Shown piece after piece: positions 6,175 to 32,660 of a stretch of 64,000 bases of DNA. Position numbers and translations under genes: made by a program. Every line of letters starts with the position of its first letter. Positions within the stretch are counted from its first letter, which is position 1. The notes under the pieces are model-generated. The model saw nothing but the letters and a program-made list of their open reading frames with translations. It had not been told where the DNA came from and did not search any database. The DNA is taken from contig JAAYBV010000001.1 of the NCBI GenBank assembly GCA_012744475.1, forward strand, positions 1-64,000. The letters run 5' to 3'. This DNA comes from Phycisphaerae bacterium (GTDB lineage: Bacteria; Planctomycetota; Phycisphaerae; Sedimentisphaerales; Anaerobacaceae).

Positions 6175-6340
6175 CGTACCGCACCCCCTTCAATGGGTCC
6201 TATAAAATCCAACGCCACGGAAGCGCACACCCTCCGGGCTCTTGTCCAACCTGTGTTTATATCGGCACCACACAGGTCTTTTCTGCAGTATTGTCTGGCC
6301 GGCCACGAGCCGCCGTCGGCGCGTTCGCTGAAAACGCGCG

Positions 6341-7984
6341 TCAGGGTTTGGCGATCGTGGTGGCGTAGCGGTTAGTGATGGGCAATCGGCGGTCTTTGCC
6401 GAAGGCCTTGGGGGTGATGCGAACGCCGGGCGGGGACTGGCGGCGCTTGTACTCGTTGCGGTCGATCATCCGGATCACGCGCTCGACGTCTTTGGCGGGC
6501 AGGCCGGAGGCGACCAGCTCGCGGGCGGACAGGTCCTTCTCGACGTAGCCCTTGATGATTTCGTCGAGCAGATCGTAATCCGGCAGCGAGTCGGCGTCCT
6601 TCTGATCGGGCCGCAGCTCGGCGCTGGGCGGGCGCGTGATGACGGCGGACGGAATCAGCTCGCGGCCGGCCTTCTCGTTCATGTAGGCAGCGAGGCGATA
6701 GACCACCGTCTTGAGCACATCCTTGATGACCGCGAATCCACCGGCGCTGTCGCCATAGAGCGTGCTGTAGCCGACGGAGGTTTCGCTCTTGTTGCCGGCG
6801 GTCAGCACGAGCGCTCCAGCCTGGTTGCTCAGGGACATCAGGATCGTGCCGCGAATCCGCGCCTGGAGGTTCTCGTAGGCCAGACCCTTCTCGTCCCAGG
6901 TCGGGTCCGCCTGGAGCGCCTTGTTGAACGGCGTCAGGATCGGCTCGATGGGAATTGTCAGCAGCACAAAACCCAGGTTATTGGCCACCTTGGCCGCATC
7001 GGCGATGGTCTCGGGGCTGTTGAACCGCGAGGGCATGGTGATGCCCAGCACGTTCTCGGCGCCGAGGGCGGCCACGGCGATGGCGGCGGTGACCGCCGAA
7101 TCGATCCCGCCGCTGATGCCCAGCAGCACCTTGCGAAACCCGTTCTTTCTCGCGTAGTCCCGCGTGCCCAGGACAAGGGCCTGATAGACCTCGTCCAGCA
7201 GTTCCTCGGCCCCTGTGACCGGCGGCCGGACCGGGGCGATGGTGACGGTGCCGGCGGACCGCGCCACGTCGGCGATCAGCAGGTCCTCGTCAAAGGCTCT
7301 GGCCCTGGCGGCGATCCGACCGGCGGAGTCGGCCAGGATGCTCCGGCCGTCGAAGACCAGTTCGTCCTGTCCGCCGATCAGATTGCAGTAGGCCACGCCG
7401 CAGCCAAAGGCTTTCGTGCATCGTGCGATGATACGGCCCCGTTCGTCAAGCTTGCCCATGTGGAAGGGCGAGGCGGAGACATTGACCAGCAGATCGAAGG
7501 GATCGACATCGGCGAAGAACCGCCGGAGAGTCTCGGTCTCCCAGAGGTCCTCGCAAATGGTCAGGGCGACTCTCAGCCCGCCAATCTCGATGAGAACGGG
7601 ACGGTTGCCGGGCTTGAAGTAGCGACGCTCGTCGAAGACGCCGTAATTGGGCAGCTCGCGTTTCTGGTAGGTTTCAGCGATGCGCCCCTCCTGGATCACG
7701 ACCGCGGCGTTGAACGCGGTGCCGTTGACGCTCTCGACGAAGCCGGCCACGACAGTCTTCCGGGGACAGGCGCCCGCCAAGGTTTCGACTGCGGTCCAGT
7801 TGTCTTCCAGAAACTGCCTCTTGTACACCAGGTCTTCGGGAGGGTAGCCACAGACCGCCAGTTCGGGGAAGACCACCAGGTCCGCTCCGGCCTCGACGGC
7901 CTGTGCCCACATCGTCTTCATCTTCTCCACATTGCCCGACAGATCGCCGACGGTGGCGTTGAATTGGCCCAGAGCGACTCGCAC
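6341..7984 (-). CDS. nadE: Glutamine-hydrolysing NAD+ synthetase
   Basis: The 547-residue enzyme makes NAD+ from deamido-NAD, ATP and glutamine. Residues 1-260 form a nitrilase-type glutaminase with the catalytic Glu in 'VFPELAVCGYPPEDL', Lys in 'YQKRELPNYGVFDE' and Cys in 'ALTICEDLWE'. Residues 270-547 form the synthetase with the P-loop 'GISGGIDSAV' and 'GNKSETSVGYSTLYGD'. It uses a GTG start at 7984 with a GGAG 11 bases upstream. It closes the minus-strand run that starts the window. Because it can use glutamine, it should work without a separate ammonia supply. Confidence 0.95.
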   Translation of the reverse strand: MRVALGQFNATVGDLSGNVEKMKTMWAQAVEAGADLVVFPELAVCGYPPEDLVYKRQFLEDNWTAVETLAGACPRKTVVAGFVESVNGTAFNAAVVIQEGRIAETYQKRELPNYGVFDERRYFKPGNRPVLIEIGGLRVALTICEDLWETETLRRFFADVDPFDLLVNVSASPFHMGKLDERGRIIARCTKAFGCGVAYCNLIGGQDELVFDGRSILADSAGRIAARARAFDEDLLIADVARSAGTVTIAPVRPPVTGAEELLDEVYQALVLGTRDYARKNGFRKVLLGISGGIDSAVTAAIAVAALGAENVLGITMPSRFNSPETIADAAKVANNLGFVLLTIPIEPILTPFNKALQADPTWDEKGLAYENLQARIRGTILMSLSNQAGALVLTAGNKSETSVGYSTLYGDSAGGFAVIKDVLKTVVYRLAAYMNEKAGRELIPSAVITRPPSAELRPDQKDADSLPDYDLLDEIIKGYVEKDLSARELVASGLPAKDVERVIRMIDRNEYKRRQSPPGVRITPKAFGKDRRLPITNRYATTIAKP

Positions 7985-8148
7985 TTTTGCTCTAACTCCA
8001 AACGACTCGATGCACTAAAAGCCCGGCACGACGCTCTTGCCGTTCGCAGTGTGCCCGCAGGGCATAACGCCTGATGGCGTCACTTCAGACGATTCTATCG
8101 GTCCGCCCTTGGGCGGCAACTCTTTTTGTCGCCGCCTCGCCGATCGGG

Positions 8149-8204
8149 CGCCTGCCGGTAGGGGCGAATAATCATTCGCCCCTACGCGGGTTGACCGGCA
8201 GGCG
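8149..8204. repeat. Nested perfect palindrome in the nadE/GNAT intergenic region
   Basis: The inner stem GTAGGGGCGAAT (8158-8169) pairs perfectly with 8174-8185 across a four-base loop. The outer arm CGCCTGCCGGT (8149-8159) matches 8194-8204 inverted. It occupies the 310-base gap between divergent nadE and the GNAT gene, with a small ACGCC/GGCGT hairpin at 8068-8081. The inner stem resembles dispersed extragenic palindromes found in many genomes. No gene was seen in this gap. Confidence 0.75.
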
Positions 8205-8218
8205 GGCCCGTCTATAAT
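8191..8218 (+). promoter_or_regulatory. Sigma70-type promoter for the GNAT gene
   Basis: TTGACC (8191-8196), 16-base spacer, TATAAT (8213-8218). The -35 box overlaps the right arm of the palindrome at 8194-8204, so the repeat may have supplied or may modulate the promoter. The start codon lies about 70 bases after the expected transcription start. Confidence 0.7.
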
Positions 8219-8294
8219 GGCCGTCGGTTGCGGATCGCGGTGACGTGGTTCGCAGGCAACCTCGAACGCCTGGAGATGGACATCCCGAGCGACC

Positions 8295-8729
8295 ATGGAG
8301 AACCGACCGACATTCCGCCTTGCCCGCTCGCTGGACGATCTGATCAAGGTCTTCATCGTTCGCGGTATCGTCTTCATGGACGAGCAGCACGTGCGCTACG
8401 GCCAGGAAATGGACGAGCACGAGCATGCCGCCATCCATATCCTCGGCGAGCTCGACGGCGAGCCTATCGCCGCCGGGCGAATTCGTTTCACCGGCCCGTT
8501 TGCCAAACTCGAACGGCTTGCCGTGCGAAAACCCTATCGCGGGCGGGGCTACGGCGACCAGCTCGTGCGTTTTGCCATGGACGTCGCTCGGGGGATGGGC
8601 TCCAACCGCTTCAAGCTCAACGCCCAGTTGGCCGTCCGCGATTTCTACGCCCGGCATGGGTTCCGCGTCTGTGGCGAGAATTTCACCGAGGCCAACATCG
8701 AACACTGCCCCATGATCCGCGAAGACTAG
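8295..8729 (+). CDS. GNAT family N-acetyltransferase
   Basis: This 144-residue protein is a single GNAT domain. The acetyl-CoA-binding motif A is visible as 'LERLAVRKPYRGRGYGDQLV', with R-G-R-G-Y-G as the pyrophosphate loop, and the C-terminal strand-turn reads 'VRDFYARHGFRVCGENFTE'. The arrangement with 'EHAAIHILGELDGEPIAAGRIR' resembles the ElaA-like subgroup, whose substrates are mostly unknown. It has its own near-consensus promoter and no clear Shine-Dalgarno sequence. A gene of unknown function follows 43 bp downstream on the same strand. The substrate cannot be deduced. Confidence 0.8.
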   Translation: MENRPTFRLARSLDDLIKVFIVRGIVFMDEQHVRYGQEMDEHEHAAIHILGELDGEPIAAGRIRFTGPFAKLERLAVRKPYRGRGYGDQLVRFAMDVARGMGSNRFKLNAQLAVRDFYARHGFRVCGENFTEANIEHCPMIRED

Positions 8730-8772
8730 ACCCGGGTACAGTCCAAGATGACAACCATGAGCGGGGCCCGAT

Positions 8773-10929
8773 ATGAAGACGACCATCACAATTCTGTGTT
8801 GTGTGCTGGTGACGGGGGGTGTTCTTGTCGCGAAGGAAGCCGCAAGAACGTATCGCGACGAGTCCTTCCTCCAGGACTACAGCGAGAGGGTCCCCCTGGC
8901 ATCTGAGCTTCACGGCGCCCAACTGCGGAAGGTCCGCGCCGACCGCAACGGCCGAGTCCTTGTGCTCTCGGACAAAGGGCTGTTGCAGGTCCACGAAGGC
9001 AGGCTCAAGCCGGACCGGCTTCATCGGCCTCTGGCGGATATGCAGATCAGGGACATGGAAGTCCACGAGGGCCAATTCGTGTTTCTCACCGACAAGCACG
9101 TCCTGAGCAACGCCTGGGCTGGCCGATTTCTTGCGAGCCACAAGATGCGCGATGCCGAGAGGTTTGCGATGGGGACAGCATTCGATTTCCTGGTCGCCGG
9201 GAGCGAACGTGTCGCCTGCTTTCGTGGGCCGGATGCGGTCCGCGAGCTATCCACCGAAGGCGGCGTCAGACAAGCCGTCTTCGACCCTGTGCGAAAGCAA
9301 TTCCTCGTGCTCACAGAGACCGCGTTGTGGCGCGTGACGTCGGCCGGGGAGCAAGCCGCTGTCTTTCGGCACGGGCAAATGAACTGCCTTGCCCCGACAG
9401 ACGAGGATTGGTGGATGGGCACGTCAAACGGCTACCTGCGTCTCGATCGGAGGTCGTTCGAGCAGCGGTCGGACATCGAAACGAAGGTGCCCTGCACTGA
9501 GATTCTCTGCATCCGACCCATCGGCGACAAGACGTGGTTCGGGACGCCGCGAGGCGCATTCGCCATGAATCGCGACGGCACGATCGATTACTATGCGTCG
9601 AATCGCTGGCTCGTGGATGATGCGGTGATCGACATCGCGCCGGGGCCCGACGGCTCGGTGCTGATCCTCTCGAAGACCGGCCTGAGCATCATTCACTTCG
9701 AGCCGATGACGCTGGCCGGCAAGGCCGAGCACTTCGACAAGCTAACGCGCCGGCGGCACATTCGCTATGGCTTCAACAGCGCGTTCGCCATGAGCGAGCC
9801 GGGCGACCTGTCCACCGGGACGCTGATCGACGAGGACAACGACGGGCTCTGGACGTCGATGTACCTGGCGGGCGAGCTGTTCCGCTACGCCGTCACCCGA
9901 TCGGATGAGGCGCTGCGCAACTGCTATGAGTCCTTCGAAGCCATGGAACGGCTCACCGAGATCACGCCGATGGAGGGCTTTCCCGCCCGCTCCTTCGACC
10001 GCGCCGGCTATCAGGTGGCCGACAAGCCGCGCTGGCAACCGGCGGCGGACGCACATTGGGTCTGGAAGGCGACCACCAGCAGCGACGAGATCGTGGGACA
10101 TTTCTTCGTTTATGCGATCTTCGCCGAGATCGTGCCGGACCAGAGCTGGCGCGACCGGGCCGTGGCGCTGATCGACGCCATCATGGACCACATCGTGCGG
10201 AACGACTGGTACTTGGTGGACTACGACGGCAAGCCCACGCAGTGGGGTCGCTGGCACCCGGAATACGTGAACCGGTTCCCTCGTCAGGTGGGCGACCGGC
10301 GGCTGAACTCGGTCGAGATCATCGCGTTCCTCCAAACCGCCTGGCATTTCACGGGCAAGGACATCTACCGGCAGAAGGCCTTCGAGCTGTTCGAGAAGCA
10401 CGGTTACCTCGACAACATCATGATCCCGATCTGGGAGATCGGCCGCGTGCCCGGGATCGATCTGACGACGGAATGGAACCACTCCGACGATGAGCTGGCC
10501 TTCCTGAGCTACTGGAACCTGTACCGCTACGCCTTCAACGAGGATCTTCGTGAACAGTATCGCCGGACCATCAAAGAACACTGGCAGATCGAGCGGCCTG
10601 AGAAGAACCCGCTGTGGAACTTCATCTACGCCGATACGGGGGCCGAGCAGTTCGACCTGGCCGAGTCGATCTGGAGCCTGCAGCAGTTCCCTCTCGACAC
10701 GATCGGCTGGGACATCCGCAACAGCGACCGGCGAGACCTCACGTTCCTGGAACCGAATTTCCGGGAGCAGTCCACGCCCGAGGTTCTGCCGCCCGACGAA
10801 CGGCCGATGAGCAAGTACAACGGCAACGCCTTTCGCCTGGACGGCGGCGAGGGCGGCCGGCGTGAATTCAGCGGAGATATCTACCTGTTGCCCTACTGGA
10901 TGGGCCGCTACCTCGGCGTCATCCACTGA
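8773..10929 (+). CDS. Secreted propeller plus alpha/alpha-toroid protein, function unknown
   Basis: The 718-residue protein has a signal peptide (residues 1-20). Residues 40-310 contain propeller-like blades with recurrent 'W-x-GT..G' strands ('WWMGTSNGYLRLDRRS', 'TWFGTPRGAFAMNRDG'), as in ligand-binding propellers of hybrid sensors. From about 320 the sequence becomes helical and resembles six-hairpin glycosidase or epimerase toroids ('GLWTSMYLAGELFRYA', 'HFFVYAIFAEIVPD', 'TTEWNHSDDELAFLSYWN'). A role in carbohydrate binding or cleavage is likely from the fold and from neighbouring glycosidase-like genes, but no catalytic acid pair could be assigned with confidence. The ATG at 8773 follows a GGGG stretch. 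Confidence 0.6.
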   Translation: MKTTITILCCVLVTGGVLVAKEAARTYRDESFLQDYSERVPLASELHGAQLRKVRADRNGRVLVLSDKGLLQVHEGRLKPDRLHRPLADMQIRDMEVHEGQFVFLTDKHVLSNAWAGRFLASHKMRDAERFAMGTAFDFLVAGSERVACFRGPDAVRELSTEGGVRQAVFDPVRKQFLVLTETALWRVTSAGEQAAVFRHGQMNCLAPTDEDWWMGTSNGYLRLDRRSFEQRSDIETKVPCTEILCIRPIGDKTWFGTPRGAFAMNRDGTIDYYASNRWLVDDAVIDIAPGPDGSVLILSKTGLSIIHFEPMTLAGKAEHFDKLTRRRHIRYGFNSAFAMSEPGDLSTGTLIDEDNDGLWTSMYLAGELFRYAVTRSDEALRNCYESFEAMERLTEITPMEGFPARSFDRAGYQVADKPRWQPAADAHWVWKATTSSDEIVGHFFVYAIFAEIVPDQSWRDRAVALIDAIMDHIVRNDWYLVDYDGKPTQWGRWHPEYVNRFPRQVGDRRLNSVEIIAFLQTAWHFTGKDIYRQKAFELFEKHGYLDNIMIPIWEIGRVPGIDLTTEWNHSDDELAFLSYWNLYRYAFNEDLREQYRRTIKEHWQIERPEKNPLWNFIYADTGAEQFDLAESIWSLQQFPLDTIGWDIRNSDRRDLTFLEPNFREQSTPEVLPPDERPMSKYNGNAFRLDGGEGGRREFSGDIYLLPYWMGRYLGVIH

Positions 10930-11073
10930 CGTGCGCTTCCTTCTCACACAGCACAGGCCTGCCGGCCAAATGGGCGTGGTCTATCGCGATCGAAAGTGGT
11001 AGGATGCAGCGAGATCGGACTGTCGTCGCGGCCATCCGCGACACAATTTCCCAGAGAAGGAGAATCCATCGAC

Positions 11074-12228
11074 ATGAGCTTTGATTTCGAGACCGTGCCC
11101 GACCGCCGGAACACAGACAGCCTCAAGTGGCGCCGCTACCAGGGTCGGGACATCATCCCGATGTGGGTGGCGGACATGGACTTTCGGGCGCCGGCGTGTG
11201 TGCTGGAGGCGCTGCATGCACGGGTCGAGCATGGGGTGTTCGGGTATGCGGTACCGCCGGAGGGGCTGATGGAGGCGGTGGTCGAGCGGGTGGAGCGGCG
11301 GTATGGATGGAGGATCGAGCCTTCGTGGATCGTGTGGCTACCCGGCCTCGTTCCGGCGCTGAACCTGGCGAGCCGGGCCTATGGCGACGACGGCGACGAG
11401 GTGCTGACCTTCACGCCGGCGTATCCGCCTTTTCTCGCGGCGCCGGGGCACGTGCACCGCGAAATGAAGGTGGTCCCGTTGCGGCGGGCCGGCGACCGCT
11501 GGACCTTCGACCTCGAACGGTTCGAGCGCGAGCTGTCGAATCGCTCCAGGGTCCTGCTGCTGTGCAATCCGCACAACCCCGTCGGCCGGCGGTACGAGCC
11601 GGACGAGCTGCGCGGCGTCGCCGAGATCTGCCTGCGTCGCAACGTGGTCATCTGCTCGGACGAGATTCATTGCGACCTCGTCCTCGACGGCGGCCGGCAC
11701 GTGCCCATCGCCACACTCAGCGAGGAGATCGCCGCTCGCACGATCACCCTGATGGCCCCGAGCAAGACGTTCAACATCCCTGGACTCAACTGTGCCTTCG
11801 CGATCATCCCGAACGTGGAACTGCGAAAGCCCTTCAAGAAGGCCCGCGAGGGAATCGTCCCTGGCACCAACGCCCTGGGTTACGCCGCCTGTCTGGCCGC
11901 CTACCGCGACGGCGAGCCGTGGAGGGCGGCTCTGATCGAGGTTCTCCGCCGCAACAGCCGTCTCGTCTACCAGGCCGTCAACGAAGAGATTCCGGGGCTG
12001 TCGATGGACCAGGTCCAGGCGACCTACCTGGCGTGGATCGATACCACGGAACTGGGTCTGTCCGAGCCGGCGAAGTTCTTCGAGCAGGCGGGCGTGGGAC
12101 TCTCGGACGGCGCGGACTTCCTGGGGCCCGGCTACGTCCGGCTGAATTTCGGATGCCCGGAAAAGACCCTGCGCGAAGGCCTCGACCGCATGAGAAGCGC
12201 TGTCGCGCAACTTGCTCGCCATCGATAG
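11074..12228 (+). CDS. MalY/PatB-type PLP-dependent cystathionine beta-lyase
   Basis: The 384-residue fold-type I PLP enzyme opens 'RWRRYQGRDIIPMWVADMDF'-like (here 'WRRYQGRDIIPMWVADMDF'), the signature of the MalY/PatB subgroup. The Schiff-base lysine is K231 in 'APSKTFNIPGLNCAF'. 'LCNPHNPVGR' and 'CSDEIHCDLVL' supply the phosphate- and pyridine-ring contacts. The C-terminal 'GPGYVRLNFGCPEKTLREGLDRM' is also typical. The likely reaction is C-S bond cleavage of cystathionine or cysteine, giving homocysteine or sulfide. The start at 11074 is chosen because AGAAGGAGA sits 11 bases upstream and the family N-terminus begins there. The next gene follows 39 bp later and may share its transcript. 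Confidence 0.9.
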   Translation: MSFDFETVPDRRNTDSLKWRRYQGRDIIPMWVADMDFRAPACVLEALHARVEHGVFGYAVPPEGLMEAVVERVERRYGWRIEPSWIVWLPGLVPALNLASRAYGDDGDEVLTFTPAYPPFLAAPGHVHREMKVVPLRRAGDRWTFDLERFERELSNRSRVLLLCNPHNPVGRRYEPDELRGVAEICLRRNVVICSDEIHCDLVLDGGRHVPIATLSEEIAARTITLMAPSKTFNIPGLNCAFAIIPNVELRKPFKKAREGIVPGTNALGYAACLAAYRDGEPWRAALIEVLRRNSRLVYQAVNEEIPGLSMDQVQATYLAWIDTTELGLSEPAKFFEQAGVGLSDGADFLGPGYVRLNFGCPEKTLREGLDRMRSAVAQLARHR

Positions 12229-12267
12229 ACCAATCCTGCAACGCGATTGCTTTCGGAGGTTCCGCTT

Positions 12268-15200
12268 ATGAAGCCATCCTGTTTGATTCTCAGTCTGGTC
12301 CTGTCTTTCGTGTCCCTGGCCTGGGCCGTTGAAGCGACGCAGGACGACTACGGTGCGCCCGCGGTGGAAGTCCGGCAGGAAGACGAGCGATGGGTCGTGC
12401 AGGGGCGCAGAAGCCGCGTCGAGGTCAATCCTTCCGATCTGCAAATGACCCTCGGCGCCGGCGGCCGTACTTGGTCCACTGTCGCGTCGGCCGCAGGCGA
12501 TCTGATTGTCGAAGCGGATGGAAAGACGTACACGCTGCGACTGGCCGATGCGAAGAGAAGGGAAGTATCGCCCTACCAGACCGGATTCAAGACCGGTCTC
12601 AAGATCGCGCTAAGCGGTTTCGCTCACGAAGGGACGGAGATCGACCTTTCGATCGCGCTATCCGCCTGCCTGGAAGGTCCGCGGGAGGACCTCGTCTGCG
12701 AGTTGATTGCTGACGAGAGCCGTTGCCAAGTGATGGAGTGTCTTTGGCCGCCGGCGCTGGCCGACAGCTCGTTCGATACGACGATCGTTCCGTTCATGCA
12801 GGGGATGCTCCTGCCCAAGGACTGGCCGCAGAAGGTCTACCTGTATGATACGCTGAGTTATGGGCGCGGTTTGTACATGCCGTGGTGGGGACATCAACAA
12901 GCCGACTCGGCCCTGCTCGTGGTGCTGGAGACGCCGGACGATGGGGGCTGCCACTTCGATCATCCGGCGGGCGGGCCGACCCGGATGCAACTGCGATGGG
13001 TCCACTCCCTCGGCCGGTTCCGCTACCCGCGACGCGTCCGCCTCTGTCTCTTCGACAAGGGCAACTACGTGGACATGGCCAAGCGTTACCGCACGTATGT
13101 CCGCCAGATTGGCCACTTCGTCTCACTCCAGGAGAAGATCGCCCGCACGCCGCTCGTGGCCAAACTCGTCGGCGGCCCCGTCATCCACGCGGGCATCCTG
13201 GTTCACATCCAGCCCGAGTCGCAGTACTACAGCAAGGACGACCCCTCCAAGAATCACATCCTCACGACGTTCGACCAGATGGCCGCGTACCTTCGCGGTG
13301 TGGCCGGCAAAGGCGTGCCGCGCGCGTACGTCCATCTCGACGGATGGGGCTTCCGTGGCTACGACAATCTGCACCCCGATGTGCTGCCGCCGAGCCCGGA
13401 GGCAGGAGGCTGGGACGGGATGAAGCGGCTCGCCCAGACGTGCGAAGACCTGAACTACGTGTTCGCCATCCACGATCAGTACCGGGACTACTACTGCGAC
13501 GCGAAATCGTACGATGCGCGGCACACCATCGTCGACCGCAACGGGGAGCGGCCCCTGTATGGCCTGTGGTACGGCGGGCGGCAGTCCATCCTCTGCTCGC
13601 GACTGGCGCCGGGACACGTGCAGAAGAACTACAGCGCCCTGCTGGACCACGGCATCAAAGTGCGCGGCGCCTATCTGGACGTCTTTGCCGTGGTGCCTCC
13701 CGACGAGTGCTACAGTCCCGAACATGCGGCGACGCGCGCCGACTGCCTGACGTATCGAGGGATGTGCTTCGACTTCATCCGCTCGACCGGGGGTGTGGTC
13801 AGTTCCGAGGAGCCGGCCGACTGGGCGATTCCGCACCTTGACTTGGTTCACCATGGGCCGTACGCCCTGACGCCGGGTCCGGGCGAGGGTCCGGCCATGG
13901 GCGTTCCGATCCCCTTGTTCAATCTCGTCTATCACGATGCGCTGCTGATGCCCTGGTCGCTGAGCAAGGGCGCCTGGGGCATTCCCGAGACCGACCTGGG
14001 CTATCTGCACGGCCTGGCCAACGCGGGCCTTCCCTATCTGTCGCTCGATCCGGGCGAGGCAGAGCTGGAGCAGGTTCGCACCATGTGCGCTCTGCACCAG
14101 CGCGTCGGACTTCTGGAGATGACGAAGCACGAGTTCCTCGACGAGTCCCGCCGCAAGCAGCGCACGACCTTCGCCGACGGCACCTCCGTCACGATCGATT
14201 TGAACGATGACAGCTTCCGCATCACGCCGGAGTTGCCGTCGGCCGCCAGCCCCGCCAAGTACATCGGCGGCAGGCGGAACTACCACTTCGACGGTGCGAT
14301 CTCCCGCGCCGTGCTGGAGAACTACCTGTCGCGCGCGATCACCATGAGCGAAGTCCTGCACGGACAGGGCAACGTGGACGATAACCTTCGTATGCTCGGG
14401 AACATCGGCGCCAAGTTCATCGGCCGGGCCATCTATCGCTGGGGCGGAGAGGCCGGATTGGAGAACCTGCTCGCCACGGCCAGGCCCATCGCTGAGCGGA
14501 TGCACGCCATCGATCCGAACATCATCCTCCAGGCAGCCGCCTTCGAGATCGTCAGCGAGCAGGTCAACCGGATTCCCATTCCGGCGAGCCTCTTCGAAGA
14601 GTTCGGCCTCGAAGCGGAAGAGCGGAACTTCCACTACGAGAACATGCTCTATCCGGATGGGCACCGGATCGACCAGTGGGGGCGCGGGTCATCCGTGCCG
14701 GACATGAGCCGGCTGGAAACGCGGATGTGGTTCACCTACCTCTGCCAACGCTATATCGACATCGGCGTCGAGGCGATTCACTTCGGGCAGGTCGAGATCA
14801 TGGACGACCGCGATCCCGACCACGTCCACTGGCGTGACATGATGCGCCGCGTTCGGCAATATGCCCGCCGGCACGCTCGGCGGCACATGGTCATCTGCGA
14901 CGCGCACGTGCCGAGCGGAGGCATCGTTCACGAGGGCGAGCTGATGTTCGACCTGCACTCGTTCCCGCTGCGGATCGACGAGGTCGTCGAGCGGCCCCAG
15001 GAGGGTGTGCTGAAGGTCGGCTATCTCGATAGCCTCTTCGGCCGCAGCAAGGGCGGCGTGACCCCGAGCGGATGGTCGTGCGAGAGCCTGCCGTATCTGG
15101 TCGAGCTGGACAACTTCGGACGAAGCGGACGCGAGGGGCAGAACATCGGCGACCATTGGATCTGGGGCTACGACGAGATCTGCTGGTTCGCTCACCAAAG

Positions 15201-15411
15201 CCTCGAATACCGCAACCAGTGGCTTCGCTATGCCTGGGATTGGATCTGCCGGCACGACCGCAACGGTTACCTGCAGATGCCCGGCAGCCGCACGCTCGCG
15301 GCACCCGTCGGCGATGTGCACTGGTACTGGGCCAACACGCCGAGCGACGCCGTGCCGACCGGCTTCGGCCAGGAAGAGACCATCAAGGCCATCTGGACCG
15401 ACGAACCATAA
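12268..15411 (+). CDS. Secreted two-module putative glycoside hydrolase (GH101/129/DUF5696-like N-terminal half)
   Basis: The 1047-residue protein has a signal peptide (MKPSCLILSLVLSFVSLAWA). The N-terminal half has a beta-sandwich lead-in (25-300), then a TIM-barrel-like part with 'AYVHLDGWGFRGYDN' (about 352-366), 'GAYLDVFAVVPPDE' with D471, and 'VVSSEEPADW' with E514/E515. The Asp-then-Glu spacing recalls clan members such as endo-alpha-N-acetylgalactosaminidases, so D471 and E514 or E515 are candidate nucleophile and acid/base. The C-terminal half (670-1047) is a second barrel-like module with 'GVEAIHFGQVEIMDD' and 'MVICDAHVPSGG'. The ATG at 12268 follows CGGAGGT. Assignment to a precise family is uncertain; both modules are visible, their pairing is unusual. 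Confidence 0.6.
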   Translation: MKPSCLILSLVLSFVSLAWAVEATQDDYGAPAVEVRQEDERWVVQGRRSRVEVNPSDLQMTLGAGGRTWSTVASAAGDLIVEADGKTYTLRLADAKRREVSPYQTGFKTGLKIALSGFAHEGTEIDLSIALSACLEGPREDLVCELIADESRCQVMECLWPPALADSSFDTTIVPFMQGMLLPKDWPQKVYLYDTLSYGRGLYMPWWGHQQADSALLVVLETPDDGGCHFDHPAGGPTRMQLRWVHSLGRFRYPRRVRLCLFDKGNYVDMAKRYRTYVRQIGHFVSLQEKIARTPLVAKLVGGPVIHAGILVHIQPESQYYSKDDPSKNHILTTFDQMAAYLRGVAGKGVPRAYVHLDGWGFRGYDNLHPDVLPPSPEAGGWDGMKRLAQTCEDLNYVFAIHDQYRDYYCDAKSYDARHTIVDRNGERPLYGLWYGGRQSILCSRLAPGHVQKNYSALLDHGIKVRGAYLDVFAVVPPDECYSPEHAATRADCLTYRGMCFDFIRSTGGVVSSEEPADWAIPHLDLVHHGPYALTPGPGEGPAMGVPIPLFNLVYHDALLMPWSLSKGAWGIPETDLGYLHGLANAGLPYLSLDPGEAELEQVRTMCALHQRVGLLEMTKHEFLDESRRKQRTTFADGTSVTIDLNDDSFRITPELPSAASPAKYIGGRRNYHFDGAISRAVLENYLSRAITMSEVLHGQGNVDDNLRMLGNIGAKFIGRAIYRWGGEAGLENLLATARPIAERMHAIDPNIILQAAAFEIVSEQVNRIPIPASLFEEFGLEAEERNFHYENMLYPDGHRIDQWGRGSSVPDMSRLETRMWFTYLCQRYIDIGVEAIHFGQVEIMDDRDPDHVHWRDMMRRVRQYARRHARRHMVICDAHVPSGGIVHEGELMFDLHSFPLRIDEVVERPQEGVLKVGYLDSLFGRSKGGVTPSGWSCESLPYLVELDNFGRSGREGQNIGDHWIWGYDEICWFAHQSLEYRNQWLRYAWDWICRHDRNGYLQMPGSRTLAAPVGDVHWYWANTPSDAVPTGFGQEETIKAIWTDEP

Positions 15412-15640
15412 ACGATGGACGACGAGCCTGCCTCCTGCATGGCCCGCAAGTGGACCTGCCGGGCAAGCGCCCTCGCTCCCTGCCCCCGGGGCCTCGCCCG
15501 ATCGAAGCAGATCCCAAACGGGGTACGTTCTCGTAAGACATGACGTACTCACATGCAGGATGCTCAGCTGCTCCAGGGAATGTTGCCTCCATGGGAGAGC
15601 GACACTGAGTGAAACGTGTGTGCGTAAGGAGTCCTGGCAA

Positions 15641-16286: not shown

Positions 16287-18518
16287 TCAGTTCTGGAGGA
16301 CGTGGCAGTGGGTCCGCAGTAGCTCGCGGATGTCCACCAGGCCGGCTTCGGAGCCGAGATAGCCGCGCAGGGCGGTCACCCTCTTCTCCGTGTCGGAATT
16401 GCTCTTGGGGTAAGCGAACAGGTACTTGATCGAGGCATCGACGGCGCCGGTGGTGTTGCCGGCGGCTTCGGCTCGCTGGGCCTGTAGGGCGAATCGCTGC
16501 CCGTGCTTGCCGCAGGCCGTCTCCAGAGCCTTCTTGAGCTTGCCGACCGCCGCATTGGCCGCCGCTTCGAGAAGCCTCCCCTCGTCGGGCAAAACCAGTG
16601 GGTCTTCCGGGACGTTGTGCGCCGCATCGGGTGAAACGAACTGGTCCGACTGAGCGTGCTGGCCCTCCACGCGCTCGGCCAGCAGCACCTCGCCCGTTGC
16701 GGTGTCGAGCATCTTCAGCATGCAGCCGACCTTGGCCGTCCAGGTCGCCGTCTGGATCGGGTACTGGAACGTGACCATGTGCGGCACGAGCACCTCCCTC
16801 GGCGTGGTCGCCGCGAGCATCTGAGCAGCGCCGAAATCGGTCGCCGCATTCACCAGACGCTGCTTGGCCTCGTCCACCTCGGCGCGGGCCCTGCGCTTCG
16901 CCGCCTGTGCGCCGGCATCGTGCGGGTCGGCGTGGTCGTACCGCGCCAGTCTCGCTTCGGCCTCCGCCAGTCTATGTCGTGCCCTGTCGAGTTCTCTCTG
17001 CGCGTGGTCGAGAGTCTTGATCGCCTCGCCATACTCCGGATTGGGTTGGGACACGAATCCATCCTGGTAGGTGGATTCGCCTTGGCCGGTCTGCCTGGTC
17101 TGGCTCGTCACGTTGCCTTCGAGCACCTGGCCGACGAGCAGCGCATCGACACCGTGCAGCTTGCCGGCGGGCACGCGGAACTGCGGATCGATCAGGTCTG
17201 TGGCGCTGAGCTGCTGCTCATCAAGGATGGTCTGAAGGTCGCGTCGCTCCACCAGCATCATGTTGGCCGGTCGCGCGTGGGTCAGGTGCTCCAGCGAGAT
17301 CGATGCGAGCGTATCGGCAATCACCTGTTGCTGCGGCGTTGCGCGAAAGCCGACGAACCCCACCGTATACTGCACTGCCTGCTGCACCTGGCCGGCGCAC
17401 TGGCCGAGCAGGCGCCGGGCATCGAAGTTGTCAGGCTCGTACCCTAACGCCACGACCGCATGAAACAGGCCGCAGCCGTCGGCACCGTCCCGCGCACATT
17501 GCTGAGAGGCCTGCACATGTTGACTGGCCAACGTTGCTCGCGCTTCAGCCGCAAGAGTCGCTGCACCGCCGTAACCCCCGAGCAGGTCCTGGCTCTTCAG
17601 AAACAGCCGCAGCGCTGTGGCGTAGTCGCCGCCGGCCATGGCCTGGCGGCCCTGCCCGATCCAGCGGTCGCACACCGCCTGCCTGGCCTGCTCCAGCAGA
17701 CCGGGAAGCTGGGGATGGAAAGCGTACAATTGCTGCGCCTGCTCCAGAACGCGCAGCGCCTCTTCGCAATCGCCCTGTGCCAGAAGCGTTTGCCCGCGCG
17801 CGACCAGCCCCGTCGCCTCGCGCCGGTTCTGCACGGTCTGCAGGATGTCTTTCGCCTCGTGCCCATCGCCGCGGTAGTTCAGCGCCGTCTGGGCCTCGGT
17901 CACCGCCGTCTCCAGGTCGTTCGCATACAGGCGGTCTTTGGCCCGCGCCAGGTAATACTGATACGCCCGCTCCTGAATCTGCTTGAGGTCGCCCTGCCCG
18001 CCGGGCATCGTCCGATTGAGGCGCAACGCCTCGGTCATTCGCCCGACGGCAGCGCTCCACTGTCCCTGCTCGGCCAGCGACAGCGCTTCGCTGCGCATCC
18101 GTTCAGCATCGGCCACGGCGCCGGCGATGCGCTGGCTCATCGAGCGATACAACGGCTCGGCCGGACAATAGCGGACGCAGCGCTCGATGAACTTCTGCGC
18201 GCCCGCCAGGTCGGCCTGCCCGAAGCAGAGTTCCGCTTCGCGATAGTAGAACTGGCCCGCCTGCTGTTTGGTCTGTTCGAGCTTCTCCCGATAGCGATCG
18301 GCCGCTTTGTTGTTGTTGCCCTTCTCCGCCAGGGCGACGGCCTCTTCCAGCTCCTCGATGGCCTTCTCGTACTGGCCCTCCTGCGAGAGCCGGGCGCCCT
18401 TCTTGTATGCCTTCTGGTGCGCGCATCCGGCCGCGACCAGAAGGACCGACAACGCCATCACCACGGGCAACAGCCTGCCCATCCATTGGCCTCGATTCCC
18501 ACGTGTTGTCCGCATCAT
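16287..18518 (-). CDS. TPR-repeat lipoprotein with C-terminal CsgG-like domain
   Basis: The 743-residue protein carries a lipoprotein signal ending 'LLVAAGC' (Cys near 32). Residues 35-350 are degenerate TPR helices ('GARLSQEGQYEKAIEELEEA', 'GRQAMAGGDYATALRLFLKS'). From about 385 the sequence matches the CsgG/penicillin-binding-activator type fold: 'DTLASISLEHLTHARPANMM', 'LVERRDLQTILDEQQLSA' and 'GKLHGVDALLVGQVLEGN', interrupted by a coiled-coil insert (about 495-560, 'LDRARHRLAEAEARLARYD'). CsgG proteins make outer-membrane secretion pores, but in this form the domain more often acts in envelope assembly, so function is inferred. It is divergent from the abiE pair. Confidence 0.75.
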   Translation of the reverse strand: MMRTTRGNRGQWMGRLLPVVMALSVLLVAAGCAHQKAYKKGARLSQEGQYEKAIEELEEAVALAEKGNNNKAADRYREKLEQTKQQAGQFYYREAELCFGQADLAGAQKFIERCVRYCPAEPLYRSMSQRIAGAVADAERMRSEALSLAEQGQWSAAVGRMTEALRLNRTMPGGQGDLKQIQERAYQYYLARAKDRLYANDLETAVTEAQTALNYRGDGHEAKDILQTVQNRREATGLVARGQTLLAQGDCEEALRVLEQAQQLYAFHPQLPGLLEQARQAVCDRWIGQGRQAMAGGDYATALRLFLKSQDLLGGYGGAATLAAEARATLASQHVQASQQCARDGADGCGLFHAVVALGYEPDNFDARRLLGQCAGQVQQAVQYTVGFVGFRATPQQQVIADTLASISLEHLTHARPANMMLVERRDLQTILDEQQLSATDLIDPQFRVPAGKLHGVDALLVGQVLEGNVTSQTRQTGQGESTYQDGFVSQPNPEYGEAIKTLDHAQRELDRARHRLAEAEARLARYDHADPHDAGAQAAKRRARAEVDEAKQRLVNAATDFGAAQMLAATTPREVLVPHMVTFQYPIQTATWTAKVGCMLKMLDTATGEVLLAERVEGQHAQSDQFVSPDAAHNVPEDPLVLPDEGRLLEAAANAAVGKLKKALETACGKHGQRFALQAQRAEAAGNTTGAVDASIKYLFAYPKSNSDTEKRVTALRGYLGSEAGLVDIRELLRTHCHVLQN

Positions 18519-18764: not shown

Positions 18765-18800
18765 TTGCGACAGATTATCATATATGATAAGATATTGCAA
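18765..18800 (+). promoter_or_regulatory. Leaderless abiE promoter with palindromic operator
   Basis: TTGCGA (18765-18770), 17-base spacer, TAAGAT (18788-18793) predicts transcription starting at or next to the A of the abiEi ATG at 18800, matching the absence of a Shine-Dalgarno sequence. A perfect 16-bp palindrome, TTATCATATATGATAA (18775-18790), fills the spacer and enters the -10. AbiEi antitoxins are known to repress their operon by binding inverted repeats, so this is the probable operator. Confidence 0.65.
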
Positions 18801-19435
18801 TGAAATGGCATGAATTGCTCCAAATGGTGGCCGATGTACCGGTCTTCCGCACGGGTTTTCTGGCCGCAGGTGCCGAAAGCCTGCCCGCTCTGCGACTTCA
18901 ACTGAGCCGTTGGGTCAAGGCCGGCAAACTGGTCCAGCCTGCCAAGGGACTCTATACACTGGCCGAGCCTTACCGCAAGATCAGCATCCATCCGTTCGTC
19001 CTTGCCAACGCGATGAAGAAGGCCTCGTACGTGAGTCTCCAGTCGGCGCTGGCGCACTTCGGGATGATCCCCGAGCACGTTCCCACGGTGACGAGTGTCA
19101 CGACACAGCGACCCCAACGGGTCGAAACCCCCTTGGGGGTGTTCGTATTTCGGTGCATCAAGACAAGCTGGTTCCACGGCTACAGGCAGGTCGACTTCGG
19201 GAATCGTCAGCAGGCGTTCATCGCCACACCCGAAAAGGCGCTGCTCGATCTGGTACACCTGACCGCGGGCGCCGACAGCCTTGATTTTCTGTCCGAGCTT
19301 CGCCTCCAGAATCTGGATACGCTCGACATGGACGCCTTGATCACTTTGGCAGAGGCAGCGCAGAGTCCGAAGCTGTGTCGCGCCGCGCGACGGATTGCCG
19401 GACTGGTCGCGGAAGAGACCGGGGAGAGACGATGA
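18800..19435 (+). CDS. abiEi: AbiEi family antitoxin / transcriptional repressor
   Basis: The 211-residue protein has an N-terminal winged helix (residues 1-60, 'LRLQLSRWVKAGKLVQPAKG', 'LYTLAEPYR') and the AbiEi C-terminal domain ('SYVSLQSALAHFGMIPEHVP', 'IATPEKALLDLVHL'). In type IV toxin-antitoxin systems of this class the antitoxin represses the operon and counteracts the AbiEii nucleotidyltransferase without binding it tightly. The start is leaderless or nearly so. Its TGA overlaps the toxin ATG by four bases, implying translational coupling. The role is plasmid- or phage-related stabilisation or abortive infection. Confidence 0.9.
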   Translation: MKWHELLQMVADVPVFRTGFLAAGAESLPALRLQLSRWVKAGKLVQPAKGLYTLAEPYRKISIHPFVLANAMKKASYVSLQSALAHFGMIPEHVPTVTSVTTQRPQRVETPLGVFVFRCIKTSWFHGYRQVDFGNRQQAFIATPEKALLDLVHLTAGADSLDFLSELRLQNLDTLDMDALITLAEAAQSPKLCRAARRIAGLVAEETGERR

Positions 19436-20250
19436 AAGACTACCTCAGACAGATTCTCGTTGGCGCGGCCGACGCAAACGTGGCGCGACGTGTGGCGACG
19501 GAGTATCTCCAGGCCCGGCTTCTCCAGTCGCTGCAGGACCAGGGCGCGTACGCCACGTGGGCTTTTCAGGGTGGGACGGCGCTGCGATTTCTCTATGCGA
19601 TGCCGCGATTCTCAGAGGATCTCGACTTCGCCTTGGTCGAGCCGCAGATCGATGCTCGCTTCGGCGAAAACGTCACCGGCTGCCGCCGCACCTTCGAAGC
19701 CGAGGGCTACGATGTCGACGTTCGCATCAAGGAGACCAAGACAGTCAAATCCGCGTTCGTGCGTTTGCGGGGTCTGCCGTATGAACTGGGGCTCTCGCCG
19801 CACCGGTCCGAGACGCTCTCGGTCAAGGTGGAAGTGGACTCGCACCCGCCCGCCGGGGCGCGCATCGTTTCGTCTCTCGTCAGAAGATACGTCATCCTCA
19901 ACCTGCGCCACTACGACAAGGCGTCGCTGCTGGCAGGCAAGCTGCACGCGATCCTGACGCGTCCCTACACCAAGGGTCGCGACATTTACGATCTGATCTG
20001 GTATCTGTCGGACCGCACCTGGCCTGTCCCGAATTTGGAGTTGCTCAACAACGCCCTGGCGCAGACGGGTCGGCAGGACCCTGAAGTCACCCCGGAGAAC
20101 TGGCGTGGCCTCATCCGCCGGCGCATCGAAACCCTCCAGTGGAAGCAGGTCGTCGACGACGTCAAGCCCTTCCTCGAACGCCCTGGCGATGTCAACCTAC
20201 TGACCCGGGAGACCCTCTTATCCGTCCTGGAGCGACCTTCGGGGGCGTAA
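19432..20250 (+). CDS. abiEii: AbiEii family nucleotidyltransferase toxin
   Basis: The 272-residue protein has the DNA-polymerase-beta-like nucleotidyltransferase signature G47-G48-T49 ('FQGGTALRFLY') and S61-E-D63-L-D65 ('RFSEDLDFALVE'). 'LRHYDKASLLAGKLHAILTR' and 'KGRDIYDLIWYLSDR' are further AbiEii/AbiGii motifs. Studied relatives transfer nucleotides to tRNA acceptor ends and stop growth. All listed catalytic residues are present, so the toxin should be active. The ATG at 19432 overlaps the antitoxin stop and is chosen over the longer upstream frame for that reason. Confidence 0.92.
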   Translation: MKDYLRQILVGAADANVARRVATEYLQARLLQSLQDQGAYATWAFQGGTALRFLYAMPRFSEDLDFALVEPQIDARFGENVTGCRRTFEAEGYDVDVRIKETKTVKSAFVRLRGLPYELGLSPHRSETLSVKVEVDSHPPAGARIVSSLVRRYVILNLRHYDKASLLAGKLHAILTRPYTKGRDIYDLIWYLSDRTWPVPNLELLNNALAQTGRQDPEVTPENWRGLIRRRIETLQWKQVVDDVKPFLERPGDVNLLTRETLLSVLERPSGA

Positions 20251-20366: not shown

Positions 20367-21773
20367 ATGCCGACGATGCCCACACGACGGACGTTCTTGA
20401 AGGCGGCGGCGCTGTCTGTCGCGGCGATGGGATGGCCCGGCATGGGCAAGGGGCGGGAGCGAAGCACATCGCCGAATTTCGTCGTTGTCTTTCTCGATGA
20501 CTCAGGATGGGCGGATTTCAGGCCGTTTGCCACACAGGACTACCCGACGCCCCACGTCGAGCAACTGGCGACAGAGGGCTGCTGCTATCGGAATTTTTAC
20601 GTGCCCCAGGCCGTGTGCTCGGCCTCGCGGGCGGCGCTGCTAAGCGGCTGCTATCCGGGCCGGACGAAGGTCTTCGGCGCGCACGGGCCGGGGGCCAGAG
20701 GGCTCGATCCAAAATTCGCCACACTGGGCGAGGTGCTCAAGAGGCGCGGTTACGCGACCGCCGTTTTCGGCAAGTGGCACATCGGCGACCAGCCTGAGAC
20801 GCGTCCGCCGGCCAGGGGATTCGACGAGTCGTGCGGGCTGATGTACTCCAACGACATGTGGGAATTCCATCCGGAGAACCCGGACTACTGGGGTCGGCAT
20901 CCTCTGCAGTTCTGGGAGAACGGCAAAGTCACGATCGATCGCGTCACGAAAGAGCATCAGCCGATGCTCACGACGTGGTACACCGAGCACGCGGTGGACT
21001 TCATCGGGCGTCACAAGGACGAGCCGTTCCTGCTGTACGTGCCGCACTCGATGCCGCATGTGCCGCTGTTCTGCAGCGACAAGTTCAGAGGCAAGTCCGG
21101 CGTGGGCCTCTACGGCGACGTGATGATGGAACTCGACTGGTCCGTAGGCCGGATCACGCAGGCGCTCAAGGCCAACGGACTCGAGGACAACACGCTCGTG
21201 ATCTTCACCTCGGACAACGGTCCATGGATCTCGTACGGCAACCACGCCGGCAGGACACCCTTCCGCGAGGCCAAGGGCACCAGCTTCGACGGCGGCACAC
21301 GCAGCGCGTGCATCATGAAGTTCCCCGGGCGGATCGAGGCAGGCACAGTCTCGAAGAAGGCCTTCTGCTCGATCGATATCCTGCCCACACTGGCGCATTT
21401 GGCCGGAGCCGAGATGCCCGCCAATCCCGTCGACGGCAGGAACGTATGGGACCTGATCGCCGGCAAGGGCGGCGCGACGAACCCGCATGACTACTATCCG
21501 TTCTCGACGGGCGAGACCTTCGAAGGCGTTATCAGCGGGGACGGCCACTGGAAGCTGCACCTGCCGCACAAGTATCGCACCCTGGTGACGCCGGGCCGCG
21601 ACGGCGCCGCCGGCAAGTACCGCCAGGAAGACATCGTCCTGTCCCTGTTCGACATGGAGCTCGATCCGCACGAGACCGCCAACGTGCTGGACAAATACCC
21701 CGAGGTCGCCGCTCGAATGAAAGGATACGCCGACCGCCACCGCGAAGAATTCTACCCGCCGAAGCAGGGATAG
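20367..21773 (+). CDS. Twin-arginine-exported sulfatase
   Basis: The 468-residue type I sulfatase begins with a Tat signal, 'TRRTFLKAAALSVAA'. The active-site cysteine C84 in 'CSASRAALLSG' is the one converted to formylglycine by an anaerobic-type or FGE maturase; none is encoded in the window. Metal ligands appear as 'FLDDSGW' and 'FTSDNGPW', with 'GKWHIGD' supplying the Lys/His pair. Such enzymes remove sulfate from sulfated glycans. AGAGGAGA lies nine bases before the ATG at 20367. It converges on the minus-strand glycosidase operon with a 12-bp gap, consistent with a joint role in glycan breakdown. Confidence 0.92.
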   Translation: MPTMPTRRTFLKAAALSVAAMGWPGMGKGRERSTSPNFVVVFLDDSGWADFRPFATQDYPTPHVEQLATEGCCYRNFYVPQAVCSASRAALLSGCYPGRTKVFGAHGPGARGLDPKFATLGEVLKRRGYATAVFGKWHIGDQPETRPPARGFDESCGLMYSNDMWEFHPENPDYWGRHPLQFWENGKVTIDRVTKEHQPMLTTWYTEHAVDFIGRHKDEPFLLYVPHSMPHVPLFCSDKFRGKSGVGLYGDVMMELDWSVGRITQALKANGLEDNTLVIFTSDNGPWISYGNHAGRTPFREAKGTSFDGGTRSACIMKFPGRIEAGTVSKKAFCSIDILPTLAHLAGAEMPANPVDGRNVWDLIAGKGGATNPHDYYPFSTGETFEGVISGDGHWKLHLPHKYRTLVTPGRDGAAGKYRQEDIVLSLFDMELDPHETANVLDKYPEVAARMKGYADRHREEFYPPKQG

Positions 21774-23321: not shown

Positions 23322-23350
23322 AAGGACCTCCGCGAGGTCGCGCAGAATGG

Positions 23351-26655: not shown

Positions 26656-26795
26656 CGTGTCTTCCCTCAACTGAAGATACCCATCCGCAAAACGATTCCG
26701 CCGGCGGTTGTCTGGCGGCCCAGCGCCGGCCCGATCTGTGCTGCCATAGCATAGCAACTGCGGCGCCGGATGTCACCCATCTGTCGCACGGATCG

Positions 26796-31604: not shown

Positions 31605-31622
31605 TGGAATTGACCGATTCTC

Positions 31623-32660
31623 GTGACTGCGACACCTTGTACTGCTGCCGATCCGCACGATTCGAGTCCGGCTCGAAGAACCTGGGGCGAACTCGCGCGG
31701 TGCAGCTACGTCAAGATGGCCATCGTCGCCGGACTGCTTGGTCTGCTCTTCCGAAGTGAAATCGAGCGTACGGTCCGTCTCTGGGTGAGCGACCCGAACT
31801 GGTCGCACGGATTCCTCATTCCGTTGTTCAGCCTGTACCTCATCCATCAGAGCAAAGACAGCATTCTGGGTCTGGAATACATTCGTGATCCGCTGGCCGA
31901 GATCCTCGCCGGCCGTCGTCCCGCGCGCCTGAGTCCGGGTCAGACGCGTCCCTGCTACGCCGGTCTGGTCCTGCTGCTGGCCACTCTGGTCTTCTACGTG
32001 TTCAACGTGGTCAGCCCGTCCGGATACGCCTATTTCCGTCCGCTGTCGCTGATTCTGGCGATCGGTTCGGTGGTGCTGTTCCTGGGCGGCCGGCGTCTGC
32101 TCGCCCGGACGTGGCTGCCGATCGCTTTTCTGATTTTCGCGGTGCCGCTGCCGCGTCGTTACTACGTGGGTCTGACGATCCCGATGCGGAAGATCGCCGC
32201 CGTGGTGGCAACCGCCTTATTGAACCTGGTCGATGGACTCGAAGCCGGATCCAGCGGCGTGGTGATCGATGTCGTGTATAAGGGCCGGCATCTGGAGCCT
32301 CCACTCGACGTCGCCGAGGCATGCAGCGGGATGCGCCTGCTGATGGCCTTCCTCGCCCTCGGCGTGGCGATGGCCTATCTGCATTACCGCCCGCTGTGGC
32401 AGCGTCTCGTTCTGCTGGCCAGTACAATTCCCATCGCGATTCTCTGCAACATCGTTCGCGTGACGGTGACGGGGTTCATCCACGTGCTGGCCGATCCGAA
32501 GTACACGCGCGGAATCTACCATGATGCGCTCGGCCTGGCGATGCTGCCGCTGGCCTTTGGCCTGTATGGTTTTCTGGCCTGGTTCATGTCGAGCCTGTTC
32601 GTCGATGAAGACCGGCTCGGCAGAAGCAATGTGATCGTTCGCGGGCGCCCCAGATCATGA
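31623..32660 (+). CDS. Exosortase (EpsH-like cysteine transpeptidase)
   Basis: The 345-residue integral membrane protein has about eight hydrophobic helices. The exosortase catalytic triad is visible: C234 in 'EACSGMRLL', R279 in 'NIVRVTVTG' and H300 in 'GIYHDALG'. Exosortases cut PEP-CTERM-type signals and sort surface proteins. The frame begins after the exporter stop; a GTG at 31623 is taken as the start because no ATG precedes the first membrane helix in this frame. The next gene starts inside its stop (ATGA, 32657-32660). No protein with a clear PEP-CTERM tail was found in the window. Confidence 0.88.
   Translation: MTATPCTAADPHDSSPARRTWGELARCSYVKMAIVAGLLGLLFRSEIERTVRLWVSDPNWSHGFLIPLFSLYLIHQSKDSILGLEYIRDPLAEILAGRRPARLSPGQTRPCYAGLVLLLATLVFYVFNVVSPSGYAYFRPLSLILAIGSVVLFLGGRRLLARTWLPIAFLIFAVPLPRRYYVGLTIPMRKIAAVVATALLNLVDGLEAGSSGVVIDVVYKGRHLEPPLDVAEACSGMRLLMAFLALGVAMAYLHYRPLWQRLVLLASTIPIAILCNIVRVTVTGFIHVLADPKYTRGIYHDALGLAMLPLAFGLYGFLAWFMSSLFVDEDRLGRSNVIVRGRPRS

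What the first reader, a model, noticed from the sequence alone, without database searches (positions are those of the whole stretch)
12268..15411. Double-barrel secreted glycosidase of uncertain family
Two TIM-barrel-like halves are joined in one 1047-residue exported protein. The first carries an Asp/Glu pair (D471, E514/E515) reminiscent of GH101/GH129-type enzymes, the second has its own conserved acidic loops. This pairing was not recognised in any known family.
Basis: partly seen in the sequence, partly recalled or inferred. Interest (0 to 1): 0.5.

Follow-up and report, generated by a model that had tools for sequence, protein, structure and literature searches.

The report
Secreted GH129 enzyme with unclassified second domain
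A planctomycete encodes one probably exported protein that joins a recognisable sugar-cutting enzyme of a known family (the kind that removes N-acetylgalactosamine from mucin-like glycans) to a second, strongly conserved domain that matches no family in the libraries searched and is probably another glycan-degrading enzyme.

Summary
The gene is real (ATG at 12268, GGAGG upstream, 1047 aa, signal-peptide-like N-terminus), and the same unbroken fusion occurs in three other genomes of its genus. The second half (about 670-1047) is unrelated to the first and has no convincing match in Pfam, NCBIfam or PDB sequences. I aligned 35 family members, most found by searches confined to the window's phylum: 28 unfused (24 of these frames are 397-441 aa), 4 fused to GH129, 2 to an esterase-like domain, 1 in a modular protein. 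Ten acidic residues are invariant, and purifying selection is at least as strong as on the GH129 half. Two relatives carry GH129 fused to an esterase instead, so GH129, esterases and this domain exchange fusion partners. Both structure predictions of the second half were poor (mean pLDDT 39 and 42); weak fold matches favour TIM-barrel glycosidases but do not prove a barrel. Best reading: a bifunctional exported glycan-degrading enzyme, GH129 plus a candidate new glycosidase-like family.

The parts
12254..12259 (+). CGGAGG, Shine-Dalgarno-like site before the ATG at 12268
   Evidence: sequence read directly
12268..12330 (+). signal-peptide-like N-terminus (residues 1-21)
   Evidence: by eye from the translation; no predictor run; residues 1-55 are 60-67% identical among fused orthologues
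12433..14223 (+). GH129 domain, residues 56-652 (catalytic D471 and E514, stacking W434)
   Evidence: phmmer to 5wzn E=2.2e-121 covering chain residues 16-628 of 640; residue mapping; same Pfam models hit as by NagBb, though not at the same strength
14224..14277 (+). variable linker, residues 653-670
   Evidence: 56-72% identity to three fused orthologues against 84-85% and 93% for the flanking domains
14278..15408 (+). unclassified C-terminal domain, residues 671-1047
   Evidence: family of 35 aligned members; no convincing Pfam, NCBIfam or PDB-sequence match

Best explanation
An exported, bifunctional glycan-degrading enzyme. The N-terminal GH129 module removes terminal alpha-linked N-acetylgalactosamine (or a close analogue) by the NagBb mechanism: D471 as nucleophile, E514 as general acid/base, W434 as stacking platform, and a metal site conserved at H307, H356, D358 and H402. 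The C-terminal module belongs to an undescribed family, so far seen only in Planctomycetota, that elsewhere is mostly a free, probably secreted protein. It most likely acts on another linkage of the same glycan, probably as a TIM-barrel glycosidase using some of its invariant carboxylates. Shown: the gene, the GH129 similarity, conservation of the catalytic residues, the family and its purifying selection. Inferred: substrate, roles of the residues, export, barrel fold and catalytic nature of the C-terminal module.
For: GH129: E=2.2e-121 to NagBb, 38.7% identity over 584 aligned positions; D471, E514, W434 and D366 are conserved in NagBb and in 20 of 20 aligned locus relatives, the four metal-site positions in 17 of 20. 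Pfam control: NagBb (613 of 640 residues given) itself misses the Pfam GH129 cut-off, 25.1 against 25.6, and has DUF5696 as its best hit as the window does. C-domain: 42 invariant positions among 35 members; dN/dS 0.08 against 0.11-0.14 for the GH129 half. Fusions: to GH129 in 4 genomes, to an esterase-like domain in 2 (L107, L112); GH129 itself to an abhydrolase/acetyl-xylan-esterase-like domain in 2 (L121, L136). Co-occurrence in class samples: 14 genomes have both, 8 close GH129 only, 14 C-domain only. Genes near some unfused members: GH116, GH2, GH130, GH51-like, apiosidase-like, sialate-esterase. Fold searches lean to GH27/GH36/GH31/GH13/GH168 barrels.
Against: No reliable fold for the C-domain. 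Other unfused members have neighbours with no glycan link: tRNA synthetase, M16 peptidases, sensor kinase, OPT transporter, xylose-isomerase-like, C69 peptidase; the neighbours scanned were chosen by me and no background rate was measured. In the 10 other genomes with both families, the two lie on different contigs in 9 and 850 kb apart in one. 14 of 28 C-domain genomes in the class sample lack the close GH129, and 3 of the 14 co-occurring genomes (G640, G614, G741) have only partial C-domain matches. The second-model fold lists also hold pyridoxal kinases, RecA and acetyl-CoA carboxylase. The GH27-like strand GVEAIHFGQ has Gly-Gln where GH27 has its Asp nucleophile (recalled motif). The window's GH101 score is below the cut-off that NagBb passes.
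Confidence: 0.55

Rival explanations
1. The C-terminal domain is a non-catalytic glycan-binding or substrate-presenting module that targets the GH129 to its polymer.
For: It is appended to unrelated enzymes (GH129, esterase-like) as binding modules are; no catalytic residue has been shown.
Against: About 375 aa with 42 invariant positions, ten of them acidic, is large and strongly constrained for a binding module; 28 of 35 members are not fused to another recognisable domain.
Confidence: 0.2
2. The C-terminal domain is an enzyme, but not a glycosidase (for example an esterase, lyase, isomerase or epimerase).
For: Fusion with and adjacency to esterase-like proteins; the weak fold evidence allows other alpha/beta folds.
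Against: No family signature in Pfam or NCBIfam; the first-model fold lists are headed by glycosidases.
Confidence: 0.2
3. The GH129 module acts on another alpha-glycoside (sulfated or acylated GalNAc, alpha-galactoside, 3,6-anhydrogalactoside) and not on mucin-type GalNAc. This concerns the first module only and is compatible with the best explanation.
For: Only 38.7% identical to NagBb; DagB, a GH129-like 3,6-anhydro-D-galactosidase, also matches at E=1.6e-17 (activity from PMC5698469, passages); a sulfatase gene lies at 20367-21773.
Against: Stacking Trp, both catalytic residues, D366 and the four metal-site residues are as in NagBb; DagB homologues keep only one of the two NagBb catalytic residues (PMC5698469, passages).
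Confidence: 0.3
4. Two adjacent genes joined by an assembly or frame error.
For: The C-domain is usually a separate gene.
Against: The same unbroken fusion is found in four genomes of the genus (window, L016, L017, L113), with purifying selection on both sides.
Confidence: 0.01

Closest known systems
NagBb, GH129 alpha-N-acetylgalactosaminidase of Bifidobacterium bifidum (PDB 5wzn)
   Same: Homology over window residues 56-652 and chain residues 16-628 of 640; catalytic Asp/Glu, stacking Trp, and the four His/Asp residues that read Ala in 5wzq are all present
   Different: The window protein has a signal-peptide-like N-terminus and a further 395 residues; 38.7% identical; its Pfam GH101 score is below the cut-off that NagBb passes
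DagB (ZGAL_3152), GH129-like alpha-1,3-(3,6-anhydro)-D-galactosidase (PDB 5opq)
   Same: Matches residues 82-647 at E=1.6e-17
   Different: Far more distant; per PMC5698469 (passages read) its homologues keep only one of the two NagBb catalytic residues, whereas the window has both
[quoted passage not shown]
   Same: Weak match around the barrel: Pfam GH101 24.0 bits against cut-off 25; phmmer E=0.032
   Different: Below cut-off; the window protein is much closer to GH129
GH27, GH36, GH31, GH13 and GH168 TIM-barrel glycosidases (for the C-domain only)
   Same: Top fold matches of two low-confidence models, Z up to 6.9 and 6.4
   Different: No sequence similarity detected in PDB searches; model confidence too low for a fold claim

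Membership tests
GH129 (N-terminal module) | Full-length sequence similarity to a characterised GH129 enzyme | tested here: met
   NagBb 5wzn E=2.2e-121, query 56-652 to chain 16-628 of 640; 38.7% identity over 584 positions
GH129 (N-terminal module) | Catalytic Asp and Glu (NagBb D435, E478) | tested here: met
   D471 and E514 align with them. D435 as catalytic: PMC5698469 passages; E478 and the split of roles are recalled
GH129 (N-terminal module) | GalNAc-stacking Trp398 and metal-site residues | tested here: met
   W434 = W398 (role from the PMC8106489 passage). H307, H356, D358 and H402 align with NagBb H271, H320, D322 and H366, which read Ala in 5wzq; that these are the metal ligands is recalled
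GH129 (N-terminal module) | Pfam PF11308 (Glyco_hydro_129) above its cut-off | tested here: not met
   Not listed for the window protein at E 1; 16.2 and 15.5 bits for the fused orthologues in L016 and L113; cut-off 25.6. Not a fair defining feature, since NagBb itself scores 25.1
GH129 (N-terminal module) | Alpha-GalNAcase activity | not testable with these tools
   needs an enzyme assay
GH101 | Pfam PF12905 above cut-off | tested here: not met
   24.0 bits against cut-off 25
Any Pfam or NCBIfam family (C-terminal domain) | A model above threshold for at least one family member | tested here: not met
   17 of the 35 members scanned: Pfam only a chance reovirus polymerase hit (best E 1.5) in 2 of 17; NCBIfam 0 of 17 at E 0.01
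TIM-barrel glycosidase, clan GH-D or GH168 type (C-terminal domain) | (beta/alpha)8 fold matching the clan | tested here: inconclusive
   Models with mean pLDDT 39.3 and 41.9; best Z 6.9 and 6.4; no Foldseek E below 0.001

The most novel reading that the evidence does not exclude
The C-terminal domain founds a new glycoside hydrolase family, largely confined to Planctomycetota, with its own carboxylate pair among the invariant E760/D895/E946/D948/E970, and the fused protein is a two-step exported enzyme in which GH129 removes capping alpha-GalNAc so that the second domain can cut the exposed chain, or the reverse.
Probability: 0.4. Interest if true: 0.55.

Novelty: new variant of a known kind. 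Interest (0 to 1): 0.4.

Why it matters
Planctomycetota encode many glycan-degrading enzymes that cannot yet be assigned (general knowledge). A compact, strongly conserved family of about 375 residues that swaps fusion partners with GH129 and esterases is a concrete candidate for a new carbohydrate-active enzyme family. The fusion names a likely shared substrate class, alpha-GalNAc-bearing and possibly acylated or sulfated glycans, which makes the function directly testable.

Tried and rejected
Internal duplication (C-half as a second GH129 barrel): BLASTP best 16.2 bits, E 3.2; profile-profile probability 0.1%. Rejected. Gene-joining artefact: rejected, the same fusion is in four genomes. L024 and L104 as further fusions: their long frames begin with odd sequence upstream of a signal-peptide-like start (by eye), so they were counted as unfused; L106 has a short odd head and was also counted as unfused.

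GH27, GH36, GH31, GH13 and GH168 lead the fold lists, but every Z is below 8; families not listed are not excluded. A single-sequence PDB hit of the C-domain (7ar9 chain T, E 0.004, 68 residues) was dropped because the profile search did not return it; a chance NCBIfam hit of the whole protein (14.8 bits against cut-off 106) was dropped too.

Relatives elsewhere: viral contigs none by single sequence and none confirmed of 106 pattern stretches for the alignment; plasmids none; genome contigs 5 relatives of 17 stretches, all titled Planctomycetota or an order I place there (Phycisphaerales, Sedimentisphaerales). The genome searches were confined to the window's phylum and class, so presence in other phyla is not excluded. 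GH129-half relatives in the phylum sample: 28 of 392 genomes at E 1e-10, at most 37% identical outside the window's own gene.

Neighbourhood function: carbohydrate genes occur near some unfused members, but I chose the neighbours scanned, measured no background, and many are unrelated, so this has little weight. Co-occurrence: Fisher P=5e-13 by genome, 5e-9 by genus, 3e-9 if the three partial C-domain genomes are counted as negative, and 1e-5 if the window's genus is left out as well. Relatives are not independent, and I assumed that the 391 genomes lie within the 397.

A correction: a first mapping of the metal-site histidines used a wrong position (392, a Cys); the right residue is H402.

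Literature searches: GH129 (25 of 74 papers listed), GH129 with Planctomycetes, NagBb (10 of 13), DUF5696, family 129, Planctomycetes with new glycoside hydrolase family, GH168. In these listings I saw no title that describes this fusion or domain. Passages only were read of PMC5698469, PMC8106489 and PMC11943901 (not used in the argument).

Full report
What is there. The frame 12268-15411 (+) is an intact gene of 1047 codons plus stop. The ATG at 12268 has GGAGG upstream, and the N-terminus looks like a Sec signal peptide (by eye). The window lies in a Planctomycetota genome, judged by the titles of the named records that hold close relatives of the gene.

First half. A phmmer search of PDB sequences matches residues 56-652 to NagBb, the GH129 alpha-N-acetylgalactosaminidase of Bifidobacterium bifidum, at E=2.2e-121 over chain residues 16-628 of 640. 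Identity is 38.7% over 584 aligned positions. H307, H356, D358 and H402 align with NagBb H271, H320, D322 and H366, which read Ala in the 5wzq chain; that these bind the metal is recalled. D471, E514, W434 and D366 are conserved in 20 of 20 locus relatives aligned. The four metal-site positions are conserved in 17 of 20: L128 and L129 differ at three of them and L141 at one. Pfam reports DUF5696 above cut-off and DUF6259 and GH101 just below theirs. NagBb itself, as 613 residues, has DUF5696 as its best hit, passes GH101 (32.7 against 25), and misses the Pfam GH129 cut-off, 25.1 against 25.6. The window protein is not listed for the Pfam GH129 model at all, and two fused orthologues score 16.2 and 15.5 bits. 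So the first half is GH129 by similarity to a characterised member, although the Pfam GH129 model passes for neither.

Second half. Residues 653-1047 have no convincing match in PDB sequences, Pfam or NCBIfam. They are unrelated to the first half. Relatives were found in 9 of 392 phylum genomes, in 28 of 397 class genomes, and in 5 loci of genome contigs; these sets overlap, and the first two were confined to the window's phylum. 42 positions are invariant among the members that have a residue there (38 positions in 35 of 35, 4 in 34 of 34), ten of them acidic: E760, D812, E817, E835, D849, D895, E946, D948, E970 and E1036. By my count are fused to GH129, 2 to an esterase-like domain, 1 lies inside a modular protein, and 28 are unfused. 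Of the unfused frames 24 of 28 are 397-441 aa, and many have signal-peptide-like or lipoprotein-like N-termini by eye.

The fusion is real and maintained. The four GH129 fusions (window, L016, L017, L113) are all from the window's genus, and all four same-genus genomes listed in the class sample have it. Against the three orthologues, the GH129 half is 84-85% identical with dN/dS 0.11-0.14; the C-domain is 93% identical with dN/dS 0.08; the short linker is 56-72% identical.

Fusion partners. In two relatives of the same family but other genera (L121, L136) GH129 carries instead a C-terminal domain that matches Abhydrolase_7, acetyl xylan esterase and glucuronyl esterase models. In two genomes of another family (L107, L112) the C-domain is fused behind an esterase-like domain with no Pfam match ('GHSGGG' and the esterase label are my reading). 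In L109 a homologue of that domain, 69-72% identical, lies in the gene directly before an unfused C-domain gene. One member (L026) sits between a weak discoidin-like and an HpiC1-like region with a weak dockerin match. Four more copies lie beside it, with GH130, GDSL lipase and sodium:solute symporter genes in the same cluster.

Co-occurrence. In class samples, 14 genomes have both the close GH129 (E up to 1e-60) and the C-domain, 8 only GH129, 14 only the C-domain. Three of the 14 (G640, G614, G741) have only partial C-domain matches; counting these as negative leaves 11, 11 and 14, and dropping the window's genus as well leaves 7, 11 and 14. All of these exceed chance by Fisher's test, but shared ancestry is not controlled, and the two samples (397 and 391 genomes) were assumed to be nested. 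In the 10 genomes outside the genus with both, they lie on different contigs in 9 and 850 kb apart in G714.

Fold of the second half. Only window and the search for related loci sequences may be handed to the predictor, which left six similar rows; mean pLDDT was 39.3 and 41.9. Fold comparison of these poor models puts GH27, GH36, GH31, GH13 and GH168 barrels high, but with Z at most 6.9 and Foldseek E no better than 0.002, and the lists of the second model also hold pyridoxal kinases, RecA and acetyl-CoA carboxylase. I treat the barrel as likely but unproven. The sequence GVEAIHFGQ resembles the GH27 strand that ends in the nucleophile (motif recalled), but has Gly-Gln there, so a GH27-type nucleophile is not evident.

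Mechanism. Most likely the exported protein removes alpha-linked GalNAc or a close analogue with its GH129 module and acts on a neighbouring bond of the same glycan with its second module. The chemistry of the first module rests on homology to NagBb; that of the second is inference from size, invariant acids, free-standing relatives and enzyme fusion partners.

Verdict. The first half is a known family. The second half is the interesting part: a conserved family without a name in the libraries searched. Since the protein is a known enzyme with an undescribed companion domain, I rate it a new variant of a known kind, with a real chance that the companion is a new glycosidase family.

Noticed in passing
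window 20367-21773 (+), 21786-23939 (-), 24538-26757 (-): Sulfatase with a weak Tat-signal match, an MGH1-like glycoside hydrolase and a DUF2961 protein in a row downstream; a DUF2961 gene also lies near the fusion in L016 (4315-6831).
   Followed up: partly
window 18800-20250 (+): AbiEii-type nucleotidyltransferase toxin gene preceded by a 211-aa frame that could be its AbiEi-like partner (not tested).
   Followed up: no
window 8773-10929 (+): 718-aa signal-peptide-like protein with no Pfam or NCBIfam hit at E 1; by eye a repeat-like first half and a helical-barrel-like second half.
   Followed up: no
L026 (G127) 5592-15618 (-): Five paralogues of the C-domain in one cluster with GH130, and SSF transporter and GDSL lipase genes next to it; one paralogue is modular with discoidin-like, HpiC1-like and weak dockerin matches.
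   Followed up: partly
L121, L136: GH129 fused to an abhydrolase/acetyl-xylan-esterase-like domain in two genomes of the same family but other genera.
   Followed up: partly
window 16287-18518 (-): 743-aa CsgG-like/TPR protein, convergent with the fusion gene; frames of similar size (743-755 aa) lie near the fusion in L016, L017 and L113 (homology not tested).
   Followed up: no
window 29724-32660 (+): Polysaccharide export (SLBB) protein followed by an exosortase, EpsH type.
   Followed up: no
L029 (G000:C24) 7432-9930 (+): A second, distant GH129-like gene in the window's own genome, 29% identical over query residues 148-560 of the fusion protein.
   Followed up: no
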